Source of the DNA: Pseudarthrobacter sp. NIBRBAC000502772
GTDB taxonomy: Bacteria > Actinomycetota > Actinomycetes > Actinomycetales > Micrococcaceae
Length of the DNA stretch: 64,000 bases
Reading direction: 5' to 3'
Assembly: GCF_006517235.1 (NCBI RefSeq)
Contig: NZ_CP041188.1
Coordinates: 310,001 to 374,000 of the forward strand
Shown piece by piece: positions 1-47,076 of the stretch; position 1 is the first letter of the stretch, and each line of letters starts with the position of its first letter. The notes under the pieces were generated by a model, which saw only the letters and a list, made by a program, of their open reading frames with translations, was not told the origin of the DNA and searched no databases. A program made the position numbers and the translations under genes.

Positions 1-1002
1 GAGGAATACGCGGATTTCCTCAGCGACTACTGGAACAACCAGGCAATGCTGGACATGGGCATCGACCCCGCCAGCTGGGACACCTCCAAAGGCACCGAAC
101 ACAACTGGGAGACCATCAAGAAGGTCTACGACTTCTACGGCCAGGCGTACCTGTCCAACCCGGATCTGCAGTGGGCCGGCATGGCCAACATGATCGGCCC
201 TTCCTTCGCGGGCGGTTTTAAGGACATGGCCATGCTGCGGGACCTCGCCCAGCAGATCGCGGACAATCCGGCTTCGGACATCCCGCTCCCCATCCTTGAC
301 CAGATCGAACAGCTCGCCGGCATGACCGACCAGGAGATCCGCTATTACGAGACCAGCATGTTGGACATGAACAAGGAGATCTTCCTGGACCAGGCCCGCC
401 AGCACGAGGCCTACATGAACGGCGGCATCGAGGAAATCAACAGATTGCGGGACTCGGGCGCCATCGATACCGGTACCGCCGAGGAATGGGCCAAGATCGA
501 TTCCGGTGACCCGGACCTGATCCAGGAGGGCAACACCGCCCTGCTGTACCGCGAGCAGAACGAGATCATCGCGGACGATTACGACGACATGCGGAACCAC
601 CCTGGCGGAGAAGCCGTAACGTACCTGGTCACGCTGGCCGGCGAGCCATCCATCCCGGGCGCAAAGAGCTACCCGGAAGTCTTTCCCTACACCTTCAGCG
701 TGGAAAGCCCCGGCCCGGAAAGCCTGCCCTTCACCAACTGGGACAACCCCACCCAGTTCCGCACGGATTTCACCACCGGTTTCCCCGACGGGAACATCTC
801 CCTCGCGGACCAGCGGTGGGAGCTCATCCGGCAGGACACCCTCCCGGCCTACCAGGACCTCCTGGCGACGGATCCGGGACGGGCAGAGCAGATCATCGGC
901 TCGGACTTCAACGACCGGGTGGAGCAGCACCGCCCCACCAACAACATCCCCGGCATCATGGACCGCTTTGTGGATGGCTTCGGCGCGGAGGTCCACCAGT
1001 GA
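1..1002 (+). CDS. hypothetical protein, 5' end outside window
   Basis: The reading frame is already open at base 1 and runs to TGA at 1000-1002, so the true start lies to the left. About 333 residues are visible. The product is acidic and rich in D, E and N, with no membrane segment. A stretch around 75-180 (NPDLQWAGMANMIGPSFAGG) loosely recalls the aromatic NPxLxWA pattern of DUF2515-type proteins, but this is a weak resemblance from memory and I do not assign a function. The stop overlaps the GTG start of a lipoprotein gene, so the two are probably co-translated. An effector/partner relation is possible but unproven. Confidence 0.75.
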   Translation, partial: EEYADFLSDYWNNQAMLDMGIDPASWDTSKGTEHNWETIKKVYDFYGQAYLSNPDLQWAGMANMIGPSFAGGFKDMAMLRDLAQQIADNPASDIPLPILDQIEQLAGMTDQEIRYYETSMLDMNKEIFLDQARQHEAYMNGGIEEINRLRDSGAIDTGTAEEWAKIDSGDPDLIQEGNTALLYREQNEIIADDYDDMRNHPGGEAVTYLVTLAGEPSIPGAKSYPEVFPYTFSVESPGPESLPFTNWDNPTQFRTDFTTGFPDGNISLADQRWELIRQDTLPAYQDLLATDPGRAEQIIGSDFNDRVEQHRPTNNIPGIMDRFVDGFGAEVHQ

Positions 1003-42875: not shown

Positions 42876-44315
42876 TCACTTCGCCCGGTCAATCTCAGAC
42901 GCCCGCTGAGGAGGGTCTGGCATCGGCTTCGGTACAGGTTCGGGAGGCTTCGAACGGGACAGCGCGAAGCGGGTGGCCGTTGCCGTGCCGCCTGCCCCCA
43001 GGACGCCGCCAAGAACCGCGGTTGACGCCATCAGAGAGGGATCGTCGCTTGCTGCGACGAGCCGCGCGGCTCCCTGGTAGTTGTTGAGATTGTGGCCGGG
43101 CCCAATACCGAATGCACCACCTTCTGGCGTGGTTACTGGGCTGTTGAGGGTCACCGTAACCCGGTTTCGGGCGTCCGGGTTCGGTGTACCGTCGCTGCCG
43201 GGCACCCAATCCTGCCGGTGCTCCAGGTGAAGGGCGGTGACGTCGGCGTCCGGAACAATGCCACCCACGGGAGACCCTGCGGTGAGGACATATTTCATGT
43301 CGTACTCGTTAAGGAAGAGATCGTCGGCCGCCAGGTTCATTGCGTGGATTCCACCTTGGCTGTAACCCACGGCCACGACGGGCGCCCCCTTTTCCGCGCC
43401 GGCAGCCTGCAGGGCCCGTAGCACCGCAGCGTTGACTTCTGCGGAGCTGTGGCCCAGCCCTTCAACGATGCCGGCTTCGTCGAACGGATTAACGCCGCCC
43501 ATTTCACCTCCGGCCTGCGTTCCTGGAATGACCACCACGTAGGCCTTCTGTCCCCCGTTATCCACTTCGACGACTTCGATGTAGCCTTCACCGCGGTCAT
43601 CGATGATCCGTGCCCGTTCCAACAACGCAGCCGGAGAACCGTCGAATTCAATGGGCAGCGTCTCCTTCTTTTCCACGGTGACCGAACGCGGCTGAAGGAT
43701 TCGGTTTGAACGCCCGGACACACCGGCGAGCAAAGGTACCGCCGCCGCAATATGCCTGCCCGCCGCCATGTCTGCCGCGAGCGCTACCCAAAAGCGCTCC
43801 GGGGAGACTGCCAGCAAGGCAGCCATCGCAAGAGGTCCCACGGCGAGTTCCGTGACTTCCCTGTTGGGAACCGGACCCAAGCCGAGGTCCACCGCCAGCC
43901 TGCCAAGGGTTTCGGGGCTCGTCAGGCCGCCGCCAATTCCGCGCGAGAATCCCGCCCACGCTTCCGCCGTTTCGTAGTCCCTTTTGCAGTCCCGCACCTG
44001 GCTGCTGATTCCCTGCAGCTCCGCACGGACCGCCTGGACACTCCACTGCGCCTCCCCGACGTCCATCAGGGCCGCCGTTCCGGTGGGACGCGCTTCATCC
44101 TGGTACGGACACAGGTCTTCCCAGATGCGGCGCACCTCCACTTCGACGGCAGCCAGCTCGCCCGCAGCAGCGTCGAGCTTCTCCGCGCCGCCTACGAGCT
44201 CCTCCAACTGAAAACTGATCCCTCCGATGCCGCCCCTGATTTCCATGCCCCCGTCCACGGCAGGCCCTGTCAGCTGGATAGGGCCGCCGCTGCCGGATGG
44301 CGTCACCTCGGCCAT
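42876..44315 (-). CDS. alpha/beta-hydrolase (lipase-like) with N-terminal helical domain
   Basis: 479 residues from ATG at 44315. Residues 1-125 are helical (LVGGAEKLDAAAGELAAVEV, AEAWAGFSRGIGGGL), resembling the long helical head of type VII-secreted proteins. A hydrophobic middle spans about 155-200. An alpha/beta-hydrolase then has GYSQGG with Ser319, a likely Asp369 in RQDWVPG and His408 in GPGHNLNNY. The start overlaps the stop of a 100-residue WXG100-like gene (TGATG). I infer a secreted lipase or esterase with a partner, but no secretion machinery is in the window. A plain cytoplasmic hydrolase is the alternative. Confidence 0.85.
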   Translation of the reverse strand: MAEVTPSGSGGPIQLTGPAVDGGMEIRGGIGGISFQLEELVGGAEKLDAAAGELAAVEVEVRRIWEDLCPYQDEARPTGTAALMDVGEAQWSVQAVRAELQGISSQVRDCKRDYETAEAWAGFSRGIGGGLTSPETLGRLAVDLGLGPVPNREVTELAVGPLAMAALLAVSPERFWVALAADMAAGRHIAAAVPLLAGVSGRSNRILQPRSVTVEKKETLPIEFDGSPAALLERARIIDDRGEGYIEVVEVDNGGQKAYVVVIPGTQAGGEMGGVNPFDEAGIVEGLGHSSAEVNAAVLRALQAAGAEKGAPVVAVGYSQGGIHAMNLAADDLFLNEYDMKYVLTAGSPVGGIVPDADVTALHLEHRQDWVPGSDGTPNPDARNRVTVTLNSPVTTPEGGAFGIGPGHNLNNYQGAARLVAASDDPSLMASTAVLGGVLGAGGTATATRFALSRSKPPEPVPKPMPDPPQRASEIDRAK

Positions 44316-44617
44316 CAGTACCGCCCCGCCGGGTTGCCGGCGGACGTTCCCACCGACTGCGCGTGGCGTTTCACGGAAGCCAGCGCGTCCTCGAGCCGTA
44401 CCCTCGCCCTCCCAAGGGCCACTTCCTGCAGAGCCACCGAATTCCGGTATGCCCGCCCGGCAGGTGACTGCCAGTCCAAAAGCTGGATCTCGCGAAAGCC
44501 GCCGAGGACCTTTTCCACCCTCCCCAAGCAAAGGTCAACCCGGGCCGCCAACTGCTGAACCTCATAACCTCGGGACATGCATGCCGCCATGTCGGCTGCC
44601 GTCACGTCACTGCCCAT
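44315..44617 (-). CDS. small WXG100-like helical protein
   Basis: 100 residues from ATG at 44617 with GGGAGG upstream. Two long helices (about 5-45 and 55-90) flank LLDWQSPAGRAYR, with Trp49 in a WxS turn where WXG100 proteins have WxG. Size, hairpin shape and Trp turn match ESAT-6/WXG100-type proteins, which are secreted as dimers by type VII systems. Its stop overlaps the start of the lipase-like gene, so the two form an operon. The exact family is not confirmed. Confidence 0.75.
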   Translation of the reverse strand: MGSDVTAADMAACMSRGYEVQQLAARVDLCLGRVEKVLGGFREIQLLDWQSPAGRAYRNSVALQEVALGRARVRLEDALASVKRHAQSVGTSAGNPAGRY

Positions 44618-44789: not shown

Positions 44790-44813
44790 ATGAAAGAATC
44801 AGCACATGCCTGA
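44790..44813 (+). other. possible 7-codon leader ORF overlapping purB start
   Basis: ATG at 44790, preceded by GAGGAG, encodes MKESAHA and stops at 44811-44813, overlapping the purB ATG at 44806 in another frame. purB itself has only a weak ribosome site, so coupling through this leader is possible. Confidence 0.35.
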
Positions 44814-46246
44814 AACTGCCGCCACAGCTGATACCCGCACGCCCTCCGGACGCCTGGCCCTCGCCGCGTCACCGGACCAGATCGCCCTGGGTCCGCTGGA
44901 CGGCCGTTACCAGTCCGCCGTTGCGCCCCTCGTTGACTACCTGTCCGAGGCAGCCCTGAACCGTGACCGCGTGGCCGTGGAAGTCGAATGGCTCATCCAC
45001 CTGACCAGCAACAATGTCCTTCCCGGCGCAGGCGCGCTCACCGCGGAACAGCAGGAAAAGCTCCGCGCGATTGTCACCGAATTCAACTCCGCCTCGGTGT
45101 CCGAGCTCGCCGAAATCGAAGCCGTTACGGTCCATGACGTGAAGGCCGTGGAGTACTACATCGGCCGCCGGCTGCCCGCCATCGGTATCGAGAACCTGAC
45201 CGCCATGGTCCACTTCGGCTGCACGTCCGAGGACATCAACAACCTCTCCTACGCCCTGGGCGTCAAGGGTGCTGTGGAGGACGTGTGGCTGCCCGCCGCA
45301 CGCGCCCTCGTGGCCCAGATCAGCAAGATGGCCGAGGACAACCGCGCAGTCCCCATGCTGTCCCGCACGCACGGCCAGCCCGCAACGCCCACCACCCTGG
45401 GCAAGGAACTGGCAGTCATCGCGCACCGCCTGACCCGCCAGCTGGACCGGATCGCGAAGACCGAATACCTGGGCAAGATCAACGGCGCCACCGGAACCTA
45501 CGCAGCCCATGTGGCCTCTGTCCCCGGCGCTGACTGGCAGCAGGTGGCCAAGTCCTTCGTCGAGGGCCTGGGCCTGACCTGGAACCCGCTGACCACCCAG
45601 ATCGAAAGCCACGACTGGCAGGCCGAGCTCTACGCCGACGTCGCCCGGTTCAACCGGATCCTGCACAACGTCTGCACGGACATGTGGAGCTATATCTCCA
45701 TCGGCTACTTCGCCCAGATCCCCGTGGCCGGCGCCACCGGATCCTCCACCATGCCGCACAAGGTCAACCCCATCCGGTTCGAGAACGCCGAGGCCAACCT
45801 GGAAATCTCCTCCGGCCTCCTGGACGTGCTGGGCTCCACGCTGGTGACCTCCCGCTGGCAGCGCGACCTCACCGACTCCTCCAGCCAGCGCAACATCGGT
45901 GTGGCGTTCGGCCACTCCCTCCTGGCGATCTCCAACGTGGCCAAAGGCCTTGACCGCCTCGATGTTGCCGAAGACGTCCTCGCCGACGACCTCGACACCA
46001 ACTGGGAAGTCCTGGGCGAGGCCATCCAGATGGTCATGCGCGCCGAGGCGATTGCCGGCGTCGAAGGCATGGAAAACCCGTACGAGCGGCTCAAGGACCT
46101 CACCCGCGGACAGCGCGTTGACGCCGCCCGGATGCAGGAATTCGTCCAGTCCCTGGGCTCTCCCCGAGGCCGAGGCCCGGCTGCTCGCCCTCACGCCGGG
46201 CAAGTACACTGGCATCGCGGACCAGCTGGTGGACCACCTCAAGTAG
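44806..46246 (+). CDS. purB: adenylosuccinate lyase with apparent frameshift near the C-terminus
   Basis: Cleaves adenylosuccinate to AMP and SAICAR to AICAR plus fumarate in purine synthesis. The signature GSSTMPHKVNPIRFENAE and the His-rich SRTHGQPATPTTLGKEL are intact. The frame from 44806 reads normally to about codon 451, then changes character. From 46160 the normal C-terminus (LPEAEARLLALTPGKYTGIA) continues in another frame, to TAG at 46244-46246. One extra T near 46159 explains it; without it the protein is 479 residues, the family length. As given, the frame runs on to 47076 through the next gene. Since PurB is normally needed for purine synthesis, a sequencing error or a very recent mutation is most likely. 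Confidence 0.88.
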
Positions 46247-46308
46247 GACGCCGCAGGCACAAGAAGTACAACGGCGGCGCCGGGTCCCTGGCGGGCCCGG
46301 CGCCTTCC

Positions 46309-46329
46309 GTGGTTGAGCCTGCCCAAACC
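46309..46329. repeat. dispersed GGTTGAGCCTG repeat copy
   Basis: GTGGTTGAGCCTGCCCAAACC between purB and the histidine phosphatase gene. It is close to the unit at 61674-61693 (GGTTGAGCCTGTCGAAACC on the minus strand) and more loosely to 38291-38312. Confidence 0.5.
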
Positions 46330-46404
46330 GGTTGCGGTGGGCGCGCCCGACGTCGGCCCGGCAGCCAGACGCCGGATCCCGCCGCCGGATGCGAAACTGG
46401 AGTC

Positions 46405-47076
46405 ATGAAGCTGCTCCTCATCCGCCACGGACAGACCCCCGGCAACGTACTCGGCCAGCTGGACACCGCCCACCCGGGGCCGGGGCTGACCGAGCTGGGA
46501 GAACGCCAGGCCGAGGCCATGGCACGGTCCCTGGCCAACGAGCAGATAGGCGCAGTGTACGCATCCACACTTCTGCGGACCCAGATCACGGCCGCCCCGC
46601 TGTCCCGGCTCCACGGGCTTGAGGTTGAAGTCCTGGATGGGCTGCACGAGATCGAAGCAGGGGCGCTGGAGAAACTGACCGACCACGAGTCGCACATGCG
46701 CTACATGGGGACAGTGTTCGCATGGGCAGCCGGTGACCTGGACCGCCGGATGCCGGCGGGCCCGGACGGCCACGAGTTTTTCGAACGGTACGACGCCGCC
46801 ATCAACCGGATTGCCGAGCGCGCGGCCAGCAATGGTGGCTCCGCCGTCGCGGCCGTGGTGAGTCACGGCGCGGCCATCCGCACCTGGACCGGGCTCCGCG
46901 CCGCCGGCGCCGACCATGAGTTCGCGGCCCGCCATGTCCTGTCCAACACGGGCATCGTGGCCCTGGAAGGGGACCCCGGCGCAGGCTGGAAGCTGATCCA
47001 CTGGGACGGGAGCCCGGTGGGCGGCCTCGCTCTCGCGGATCCGACCGCCGAGGACCCTATGGGCGGCGCCGCGTAG
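46405..47076 (+). CDS. histidine phosphatase family protein
   Basis: 223 residues from ATG at 46405. LLLIRHGQTPGN with the phospho-accepting His at about 8, then ERQAEAMARSL, the acid/base region HEIEAGALEKL, and VVSHGAAIRTWTG with the second catalytic His, give the phosphoglycerate-mutase-like phosphatase fold. The substrate is unknown. The frame upstream is open into purB because of the shift there, but the family begins exactly at MKLLLIRHG. Confidence 0.93.
   Translation: MKLLLIRHGQTPGNVLGQLDTAHPGPGLTELGERQAEAMARSLANEQIGAVYASTLLRTQITAAPLSRLHGLEVEVLDGLHEIEAGALEKLTDHESHMRYMGTVFAWAAGDLDRRMPAGPDGHEFFERYDAAINRIAERAASNGGSAVAAVVSHGAAIRTWTGLRAAGADHEFAARHVLSNTGIVALEGDPGAGWKLIHWDGSPVGGLALADPTAEDPMGGAA

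What the first reader, a model, noticed from the sequence alone, without database searches (positions are those of the whole stretch)
42876..44617. Two-gene module: WXG100-like protein with lipase-like partner
A 100-residue helical protein with a WxS turn (Trp49) overlaps by one base (TGATG) the gene of a 479-residue protein with a helical head and an alpha/beta-hydrolase with Ser319, Asp369 and His408. Size, overlap and head shape resemble type VII secretion substrates and their partners, but no secretion gene is in the window. This may be an undescribed exported lipase or esterase module of Micrococcaceae.
Basis: partly seen in the sequence, partly recalled or inferred. Interest (0 to 1): 0.7.

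Follow-up and report, generated by a model that had tools for sequence, protein, structure and literature searches.

The report
Lipase with type-VII export tags
Two neighbouring genes in a soil bacterium look like a fat- or ester-cutting enzyme and its small helper protein, carrying between them the two-part tag that sends proteins out through a 'type VII' secretion machine, although the marker parts of the best-studied versions of that machine were not found in this genome.

Summary
The small protein is a WXG100-like helical hairpin (WxS turn, Trp49). The 479-aa partner has an EsxB-like hairpin head followed by an alpha/beta-hydrolase. It reads YxxxD/E in 34 of 34 hand-picked homologues and, with no picking, in 122 of the 131 loci where the column could be read. 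A profile of the large proteins, run against all PDB sequences, ranks EsxB first to third with the tyrosines in register. The pair is core in the genus (61 of 61 genomes, adjacent) and spread through Micrococcales, often at the same purB/hisC/BCKDH locus. In related Pseudonocardiaceae loci the partner passes Pfam's WXG100 cut-off in 3 of 4. EccD and EssB were not found in this genome, but two EssC-like FHA-FtsK ATPases were. Best reading: a housekeeping lipase or esterase exported as a heterodimer by a non-canonical type VII ATPase. Export, dimerisation and activity are untested. New variant of a known kind.

The parts
44315..44617 (-). Gene for the 100-aa WXG100-like partner protein
   Evidence: ORF; present in 61 of 61 genus genomes; AlphaFold2 helical hairpin; the ten best Foldseek matches in the PDB are all EsxA/EsxB chains, E 0.41-0.67, prob 0.98-0.99
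44465..44473 (-). WxS turn of the partner (Trp49-Gln50-Ser51), equivalent to the WxG turn
   Evidence: Trp in 34 of 34 rows of A1 and 46 of 46 of A4, Ser/Gly/Ala at +2 (rows were picked with a W motif). Picked without the motif: 46 of 60 upstream ORFs carry it, against 16% in shuffles
42876..44315 (-). Gene for the 479-aa protein: EsxB/PE-like head, helical linker, alpha/beta-hydrolase
   Evidence: ORF; model with mean pLDDT 87.8 and pTM 0.83; 150 of 150 genus genomes, 204 of 248 order genomes at E 0.001 or better
43929..44207 (-). Head hairpin of the large protein (residues 37-129)
   Evidence: AlphaFold2 H37-71 and H79-129; the A3 profile against the PDB puts EsxB first, second and third, profile positions 33-123
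43962..43976 (-). YxxxE motif (Tyr114-Glu118), type VII export arm
   Evidence: YxxxD/E in 34 of 34 rows (A2) and 45 of 47 rows (A3; the other two FxxxE); without picking, YxxxD/E in 122 and FxxxD/E in 3 of 131 readable loci
43710..43916 (-). Helical linker (residues 134-202), moderately hydrophobic
   Evidence: AlphaFold2; 19-residue Kyte-Doolittle maximum 1.58; above 1.6 in 12 of 47 rows
42954..43682 (-). alpha/beta-hydrolase domain (residues 212-454)
   Evidence: AlphaFold2; Foldseek best match is Bacillus subtilis lipase A, E 5.2e-3, none at 0.001 or better; Pfam PGAP1 or Abhydrolase_6 in 24 and 18 of 47 rows
43359..43361 (-). Ser319, nucleophile in GYSQGG
   Evidence: invariant in A2 and A3; sits between strand 312-318 and helix 320-330
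43209..43211 (-). Asp369, catalytic acid (inferred)
   Evidence: invariant in A2, at least 90% in A3; just after strand 360-366
43092..43094 (-). His408, catalytic histidine (inferred)
   Evidence: invariant in A2 and A3; just before helix 410-422

Best explanation
The two genes encode a type VII secretion substrate pair. The 100-aa protein is a WXG100-like hairpin that should pair with the EsxB/PE-like hairpin head of the hydrolase, so that its WxS turn lies beside the Tyr114-x-x-x-Glu118 at the open end of the head hairpin. That composite signal would be read by an EssC-like FHA-FtsK/SpoIIIE ATPase encoded elsewhere in the genome: the nearly universal orphan one, and/or the T7SSd-like one. 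The folded pair would be exported without a signal peptide, and the C-terminal Ser-Asp-His alpha/beta-hydrolase would act on an ester or lipid at or outside the cell envelope. Because the enzyme domain is constant, largely vertically inherited, core and not flanked by a recognisable immunity gene, a housekeeping envelope or nutrient role is likelier than an antibacterial toxin. Shown by computation: the gene pair, its conservation and synteny, both hairpins, both motifs, the hydrolase fold and the ATPases. Inferred: dimerisation, export, which ATPase, enzymatic activity and substrate.
For: YxxxD/E in 34 of 34 and 45 of 47 rows, acid at +4 in all rows of both sets (6 rows are shared); unpicked, 122 of 131 readable loci. 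Large-protein profile against the PDB: the top three of 177,635 sequences are EsxB (E 4.6e-4 to 9.6e-4), Tyr114 aligned to the Tyr of EsxB YSRAD. In related Pseudonocardiaceae loci the partner passes the PF06013 cut-off (27.3) in 3 of 4 (32.3, 28.0, 30.0; the fourth 27.0), and in one of them PF21725 too; in 2 of these loci the middle gene matches EspG PF14011 (26.6 and 23.9 bits, cut-off 27.0). hhalign of the partner profile against those four: prob 96.2, score 51.6, 30 column shuffles 9.6 +- 1.5, reversed 12.5. Pfam on 46 partners: T7SS_signal in 19, WXG100 in 8, PPE in 7, WXG100_2 in 4, all weak (best E 1.1e-4). Models. ATPases. Composite-signal and PE-lipase precedent: passages in PMC7028111 and PMC9600955.
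Against: P0001 itself has WxS, not WxG, and no Pfam WXG100 match. Against the 7 WXG100 proteins of the genus alone the partner profile reaches only prob 31 (score 24.5, shuffles 8.7 +- 1.4, reversed 16.2) and the head profile prob 13 (21.8 against 8.6 +- 1.7 and 11.6); the higher values (92.9 and 72.5) came from a mixed set with four fused heads that are themselves weak or blank in Pfam. EccD was not found in 9 of 9 genomes without a full EccCa, EssB in 13 of 13, so no complete known T7SS is shown. No ATPase gene is next to the pair. The hydrolase is found in 4 of 17 order genomes without an EssC-like hit. Six of 131 readable loci have neither YxxxD/E nor FxxxD/E. No complex was predicted and no secretion data exist. 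Three Brevibacterium small genes scanned give no WXG100 match.
Confidence: 0.8

Rival explanations
1. A cytoplasmic or membrane-associated hydrolase with a dedicated helical regulatory subunit: the WXG-like protein is a lid or chaperone, and nothing is secreted.
For: Tight overlap and constant pairing; no secretion machinery in the neighbourhood; hydrophobic helical linker in part of the family; 4 of 17 genomes without an EssC-like hit keep a hydrolase match.
Against: A fixed Tyr with an acid at +4 at the end of the second helix is not expected of a mere subunit interface; EsxB ranks first in the PDB; WXG100 partners above the cut-off and EspG-like genes in Pseudonocardiaceae loci.
Confidence: 0.13
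2. An antibacterial type VII toxin (like the lipase TslA) with its partner, used in competition.
For: Type VII lipase toxins exist (PMC10730906, start of abstract in the listing; passage in PMC11217815); lipase fold.
Against: The C-terminal domain is constant in the genus and widespread in the order, and its tree largely follows organism families; syntenic markers in 58 of 80 loci; no immunity-like neighbour was recognised by eye in the gene list.
Confidence: 0.12
3. Chance resemblance: a short coiled-coil protein beside an ordinary esterase, with motifs read into helical sequence.
For: Helical hairpins match many unrelated folds (one search also lists Rad50 and prefoldin chains; one search also lists SMC6, tropomyosin and flagellin); single-sequence Pfam matches are weak; low hhalign probability against the genus WXG100 set alone.
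Against: Shuffled and reversed controls; motif-blind partner choice, 46 of 60 against 16%; two independent signals (W in one protein, YxxxD/E in the other) plus related loci whose partner passes Pfam's cut-off.
Confidence: 0.03

Closest known systems
PE/PPE-linked lipases of mycobacteria (LipY; PE domain with YxxxD/E, PPE partner with WxG; ESX-5)
   Same: Hairpin head with YxxxD/E fused to an esterase/lipase; partner with a W-x-[G/S] turn; the composite signal is split over two proteins (PMC7028111 passages; PMC4536007, start of abstract in the listing)
   Different: Partner is a short WXG100-like protein, not PPE; no PE family match for P0002; different hydrolase family; no T7SSa marker found in the genome; found in Micrococcales
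EsxA/EsxB (WXG100 pairs)
   Same: Head aligns to EsxB over its hairpin with the Tyr in register; partner aligns with W on W to WXG100-passing partners and folds like EsxA/EsxB
   Different: The EsxB-like half carries a hydrolase; WxS instead of WxG in the genus; no esx or ecc genes beside it
LXG effectors with Lap1/Lap2 partners (T7SSb) and TslA
   Same: Effector plus small WXG100-like partner encoded together; FxxxD in Lap1 compares with YxxxD/E (PMC9600955 passages); TslA is a secreted lipase (PMC11217815 passage)
   Different: No LXG match for P0002; the export motif is in the effector head, not in the partner; N-terminal head, unlike TslA; no EssB found
T7SSd of Actinomycetota (Garrett et al. 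2024)
   Same: The own genome has a similar locus: FHA-ATPase, Ser/Thr kinase, large Ig-domain proteins, a WXG100 gene beside it in a relative (PMC11217815 section 9)
   Different: The paper's main text has no occurrence of Arthrobacter or Micrococc-; the pair studied here also persists in genomes whose best EccC_a hits lack this ATPase

Membership tests
WXG100 family (PF06013) | About 100 residues, helix-turn-helix hairpin | tested here: met
   100 aa; H7-45, turn, H52-93, pLDDT 85.7
WXG100 family (PF06013) | W-x-G in the turn | tested here: not met
   P0001 has W-Q-S; Gly at that place in 3 of 34 (A1) and 7 of 46 (A4) rows. W-x-S also stands in Pseudonocardiaceae partners that pass the Pfam cut-off
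WXG100 family (PF06013) | Match above the curated cut-off | tested here: not met
   No PF06013 match for P0001; 8 of 46 relatives match, best E 0.0018. Of related-locus partners 3 of 4 in Pseudonocardiaceae pass; 0 of 3 in Brevibacterium match
WXG100 superfamily (remote) | Profile similarity beyond chance | tested here: met
   hhalign to the four Pseudonocardiaceae partners: prob 96.2, score 51.6, shuffles 9.6 +- 1.5, reversed 12.5. To 7 genus WXG100 proteins alone only prob 31, score 24.5, above all 30 shuffles and reversed 16.2
[quoted passage not shown]
   Y114-E118 in helix 79-129; 34 of 34 and 45 of 47 rows; 122 of 131 unpicked
T7SSa-type substrate pair (EsxA/B, PE/PPE) | W-x-G turn in the other partner | tested here: inconclusive
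   Trp conserved but Ser at +2 in most rows
T7SSa-type substrate pair (EsxA/B, PE/PPE) | Bicistronic pair | tested here: met
   One-base overlap; 61 of 61 genomes on one contig and strand
T7SSa-type substrate pair (EsxA/B, PE/PPE) | Co-secreted heterodimer | not testable with these tools
   No complex prediction or proteomics available
T7SSa machinery in the genome | EccC above cut-off and EccD | tested here: not met
   EccC_a best 311.6 bits against cut-off 509; EccD 0 of 9 genomes without full EccCa, found in 4 of 4 with it, each under the family cut-off
T7SSb machinery in the genome | EssB/YukC | tested here: not met
   0 of 13 genomes; the B. subtilis control rings
EssC-like ATPase in the genome | FHA plus FtsK/SpoIIIE domains in one large protein | tested here: met
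   Two in the own genome; the orphan one at E below 1e-180 in 59 of 61 genus genomes
LXG effectors (PF04740) | LXG domain match | tested here: not met
   Absent from the results for P0002 and from the 25 families shown (of 31) for 47 relatives
alpha/beta-hydrolase | Fold and Ser-Asp-His at canonical places | tested here: met
   Model and placement, Foldseek lipase A at E 5.2e-3, conserved residues. Single-sequence Pfam matches of P0002 are under the cut-offs

The most novel reading that the evidence does not exclude
Micrococcales inherited an ancestral, housekeeping type VII-like export route that uses an orphan FHA-EssC ATPase and neither of the T7SSa or T7SSb components tested here (EccD, EssB), and this chromosomally fixed WXG-partner/YxxxE-lipase pair is one of its conserved cargoes. 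That would be type VII secretion in envelope upkeep rather than virulence or warfare, in an order of bacteria where no paper found here places it.
Probability: 0.4. Interest if true: 0.75.

Novelty: new variant of a known kind. Interest (0 to 1): 0.6.

Why it matters
Type VII secretion is known mainly from virulence and toxins. A cargo pair present in 61 of 61 sampled genomes of a soil genus, spread through its order, in a genome where EccD and EssB were not found, would point to a simpler form of the pathway and give a harmless model for how a WXG/YxxxD-E signal is read by an EssC ATPase. It also describes a protein family for which P0002 has no Pfam match above cut-off and no NCBIfam match.

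Tried and rejected
Pfam, NCBIfam and single-sequence PDB searches with P0001 and P0002 gave nothing usable (the PDB search was run with P0002 only), so relatives were needed. The partner profile against the PDB gave only weak type VII entries (EsxA 0.49-0.52, EspB 6.8-7.4) among designed coiled coils and other helical chains. My first profile comparison (partner 92.9, head 72.5) used 11 rows, four of them heads of fused hydrolases; on checking, those heads are weak or blank in Pfam and without them the probabilities fall to 31 and 13, though scores stay above all 30 shuffles and the reversed control. The claim now rests on the Pseudonocardiaceae partners and on EsxB in the PDB search. A comparison of the head profile with the partner profile was not used: its shuffled control was unstable (maximum 130.5). 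EspG was looked for in 8 middle or upstream genes of related loci and matched in 2, both Lentzea, under the cut-off; the own paralogue's upstream gene matches nothing. The further C-terminal WXG100 pattern (hydrophobic at +7 and +11 from the Tyr, PMC3935865 passages) is only partly seen: 0.70-0.74 and 0.59-0.62 hydrophobic, so it is not claimed. Co-occurrence with an EssC-like ATPase in the order (hydrolase match in 200 of 231 genomes with, 4 of 17 without; Fisher p 4.7e-8; the tables were read by eye, ATPase called present at best E below 1e-40, only a few candidates scored per genome) is confounded by ancestry and genome reduction, and hydrolase matches down to E 0.001 can include paralogues. 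A plasmid search found one record, without annotation. Papers: outline, passages and section 9 of PMC11217815; passages of PMC7028111, PMC9600955 and PMC3935865; PMC10730906 and PMC4536007 only as the start of the abstract in a search listing. Statements that the pair is not in print rest on the searches in an open-licence library only. Gene names purB, hisC, BCKDH, glf, whiB, MoxR and transglutaminase are recognised by eye or by recalled motifs, not by a family search; the holin-like gene is a Pfam match.

Rows dropped: A1/A2 hold 34 hand-picked loci of 58; A3 and A4 hold 46 and 45 of 51 named split-type pairs plus the window, leaving out L146, L147, L148, L165 and L177 (doubtful start or partner), and L138 from A4. 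therefore read the motif column in every locus: 138 loci, one frame too short (L100), 6 with a gap there, 131 readable: 122 YxxxD/E, 3 FxxxD/E, 6 neither (L158, L161 and L170, which have fused heads; L159, which groups with them in the tree; L131 and L165). Rows of A1 and A4 (except L060 and the window) had been picked with a W motif, hence the motif-blind test, which still used the [YF]xxx[DE] of the large gene to place its start: of 80 loci 60 had a candidate, 18 none, 2 no GxSxGG; its 14 misses are 8 three-gene loci, 2 with W-x-[S/G] but failing the stricter pattern (L141, L145), and L135, L146, L149 and L154.
Full report
WHAT IS THERE. On the minus strand, 44315-44617 encodes a 100-aa protein (P0001) and 42876-44315 a 479-aa protein (P0002); stop and start overlap by one base. 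The start of P0002 at the overlap is supported by MAEVTPSGSGG-like starts in many genus relatives. Neither protein has a usable Pfam or NCBIfam match on its own, and P0002 has no PDB match. A simple codon-usage gene caller written here scored P0002 low and did not call P0001; conservation, not codon usage, makes the case.

CONSERVATION. P0002 matches in 150 of 150 genomes of the genus and P0001 in 61 of 61. In all 61 the two lie on the same contig and strand (38 within 60 bases by raw coordinates, the other 23 with 144-730 bases, mostly because the large-protein match begins after the divergent head). In the order, 204 of 248 genomes have a P0002 match at E 0.001 or better, many in the hydrolase domain only. 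In the phylum 33 of 246 do; the matches at E below 1e-30 are all in the order, and most of the rest are short and weak. Named relatives, from the best 80 of a capped scan, include Pseudarthrobacter, Arthrobacter, Paenarthrobacter, Tersicoccus, Cellulomonas, Actinotalea, Demequina, Brevibacterium, Georgenia, Knoellia, Kineococcus, Nocardioides, Lentzea and Bifidobacteriaceae. The tree of hydrolase domains largely follows organism families. Within 6 kb, 58 of 80 named loci show at least one of purB, hisC, BCKDH E1-alpha, the holin-like gene or a low-molecular-weight phosphatase by recalled motifs, against 0 of 10 unrelated loci of the genus. In the window the pair lies between hisC/holin-like and purB, with the BCKDH genes beyond (names by eye). 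Both genes look under purifying selection.

THE SMALL PROTEIN. AlphaFold2 gives a hairpin, H7-45 and H52-93, with Trp49 in the turn (mean pLDDT 85.7). The ten best Foldseek matches in the PDB are all EsxA or EsxB chains, prob 0.98-0.99 but E 0.41-0.67. Each of 46 relatives scanned alone: T7SS_signal in 19, SgrR_N in 9, WXG100 in 8, PPE in 7, WXG100_2 in 4, EspA_EspE in 1, all weak. The safest bridge is through related loci: in four Pseudonocardiaceae loci (three Lentzea, one Actinokineospora) the partner scores 32.3, 28.0, 30.0 and 27.0 bits for PF06013 (cut-off 27.3) although its turn is W-x-S, and the profile of the 46 partners aligns to these four with prob 96.2, score 51.6, against 9.6 +- 1.5 for 30 column shuffles and 12.5 reversed, Trp on Trp. 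Against seven WXG100 proteins of the genus alone it reaches only prob 31, score 24.5, shuffles 8.7 +- 1.4, reversed 16.2. Partners were first picked with a W motif; chosen by overlap geometry alone, 46 of 60 carry W-x-[S/G/A]-x-x-[A/G], against 16% in shuffled copies.

THE LARGE PROTEIN. The model (mean pLDDT 87.8, pTM 0.83) has a hairpin H37-71/H79-129, linker helices to 202 and an alpha/beta-hydrolase from 212 to 454. S319 follows strand 312-318, D369 follows strand 360-366 and H408 precedes helix 410-422; S319 and H408 are invariant in both alignments, D369 in A2 and at least 90% in A3. Foldseek puts Bacillus subtilis lipase A first (E 5.2e-3; none at 0.001 or better) and also lists EsxB on the head (rank 45, prob 1.00, E 0.16). 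In the first 205 residues the one invariant residue of the 34-row alignment is Tyr114; with Glu or Asp at 118 this is YxxxD/E in 34 of 34 rows, and in the 47-row alignment 45 are YxxxD/E and 2 are FxxxE. Read in every locus without picking, the column gives YxxxD/E in 122, FxxxD/E in 3 and neither in 6 of 131; four of the six have fused WXG-like heads or group with them. A profile of the 47 large proteins against 177,635 distinct PDB sequences puts EsxB first, second and third (E 4.6e-4, 7.3e-4, 9.6e-4, three entries of one protein); the alignment runs through the hairpin and places Tyr114 on the Tyr of EsxB's YSRAD. PE25 also appears (E 0.043), but so do syndapin, SMC6, flagellin and tropomyosin. 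A hydrophobicity window over the first 45 residues shows no signal-like stretch in 47 of 47 (no signal-peptide predictor was run). A conserved GGxGG stretch before the hairpin (Gly28, Gly29, Gly32) is unexplained.

RELATED LOCI. In Lentzea the same hydrolase family is encoded after a 172-aa WXG100 partner and a middle gene; of three Pseudonocardiaceae middle genes scanned, two (both Lentzea) match EspG (26.6 and 23.9 bits, cut-off 27.0). In Brevibacterium a W-x-S small gene, a middle gene without an EspG match and the Y-headed hydrolase lie between purB and BCKDH; three of its small genes scanned gave no WXG100 match. The own genome has a paralogue (L069:6457-7929, minus strand) whose head looks WXG100-like by eye (W-K-G) and matches PF06013 only weakly (E 0.032), fused to the same hydrolase; similar fusions occur elsewhere (L158, L161, L170), with weak or no type VII family matches.

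THE MACHINE. The own genome has two FHA-FtsK/SpoIIIE proteins of EssC type. Type A (L067:7514-11959, 1481 aa) lies with a Ser/Thr kinase, PP2C, FHA proteins and two 1.9-2.0 kaa Ig/cadherin-like proteins, much like the T7SSd described in PMC11217815 (section 9). Type B (L094:9008-12757) is an orphan. By best EccC_a hit, 125 of 150 genus genomes have an ATPase at E below 1e-89, which lumps type A, a roughly 1450-aa form and seven EccCa above the cut-off; 23 of the other 25 have only hits at 1e-54 to 1e-61, and the last two (G030, G131) are assemblies with 6-7% contamination whose hits are broken. Type B is found at E below 1e-180 in 59 of 61 genomes, the two others being G005 and the incomplete G027, which show a hit of the first kind. 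EccD was not found in 9 of 9 genomes without a full EccCa, including this one, and was found, under the family cut-off, in 4 of 4 with it; EssB was not found in 13 of 13. At the level of these markers T7SSa and T7SSb can be set aside for this genome, while EssC-like ATPases are present.

READING. In mycobacteria the WxG of one partner and YxxxD/E of the other are thought to form a composite signal, and lipases are carried as PE proteins (PMC7028111 passages); in T7SSb an FxxxD in a small partner is needed for effector export (PMC9600955 passages). The pair here has the same logic: an EsxB/PE-like head with YxxxE on the enzyme, a W-x-S hairpin as its partner. I therefore read it as a type VII-exported lipase or esterase with its co-secretion partner or chaperone. 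The steps that remain inferred are complex formation, export, the ATPase used and the substrate.

NOVELTY. Substrate pairs, type VII lipases and small WXG100-like partners are known kinds. What seems new is a core, largely vertically inherited pair in Micrococcales with a hydrolase family of its own, in a genome where EccD and EssB were not found. The paper searches made found no description, in an open-licence library only.

Noticed in passing
own genome, locus L067 and L178 (G000:C1 about 1912700-1941600): A T7SSd-like locus: FHA-FtsK/SpoIIIE ATPase (1481 aa), Ser/Thr kinase, PP2C, RDD-FHA and FHA proteins, MoxR- and transglutaminase-like genes (by eye) and two roughly 2000-aa Ig/cadherin/fn3 proteins; in a relative (L073) a WXG100-like gene sits beside it, while in this genome a closely similar gene lies elsewhere (L070:4624-4881).
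   Followed up: partly
own genome, L068:6028-6315 (-): A classical 95-aa WXG100 protein (66 bits to PF06013); WXG100 genes over the cut-off occur in 61 of 61 genus genomes. Its machine is not identified.
   Followed up: no
own genome, L069:6044-8678 (-): Three-gene set: 248-aa protein of unknown family, hydrolase paralogue with a WXG100-like head (weak, E 0.032), small 122-aa protein; similar sets occur in Oerskovia and an Intrasporangiaceae assembly (L170, L161).
   Followed up: partly
window 44806-47076 (+): The purB-like frame runs on without a stop into a phosphoglycerate-mutase-like protein, and what looks like the usual PurB C-terminus lies in another frame (45899-46246): an apparent frameshift, real or from sequencing (by eye).
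   Followed up: no
   Followed up: no
window 46-1002 (+): 318-aa protein with a DUF2515 match (26.2 bits, cut-off 24.3).
   Followed up: no
own genome, L094:9008-12757 (+): Orphan EssC-like ATPase near genes that look like glf and whiB, at E below 1e-180 in 59 of 61 genus genomes; no described system found for it here.
   Followed up: partly
window 44220-44234 (-), residues 28-32 of the large protein: A GGxGG stretch just before the head hairpin is among the most conserved parts of the head (Gly28 and Gly29 in 46 of 47 rows); its role is unexplained.
   Followed up: no
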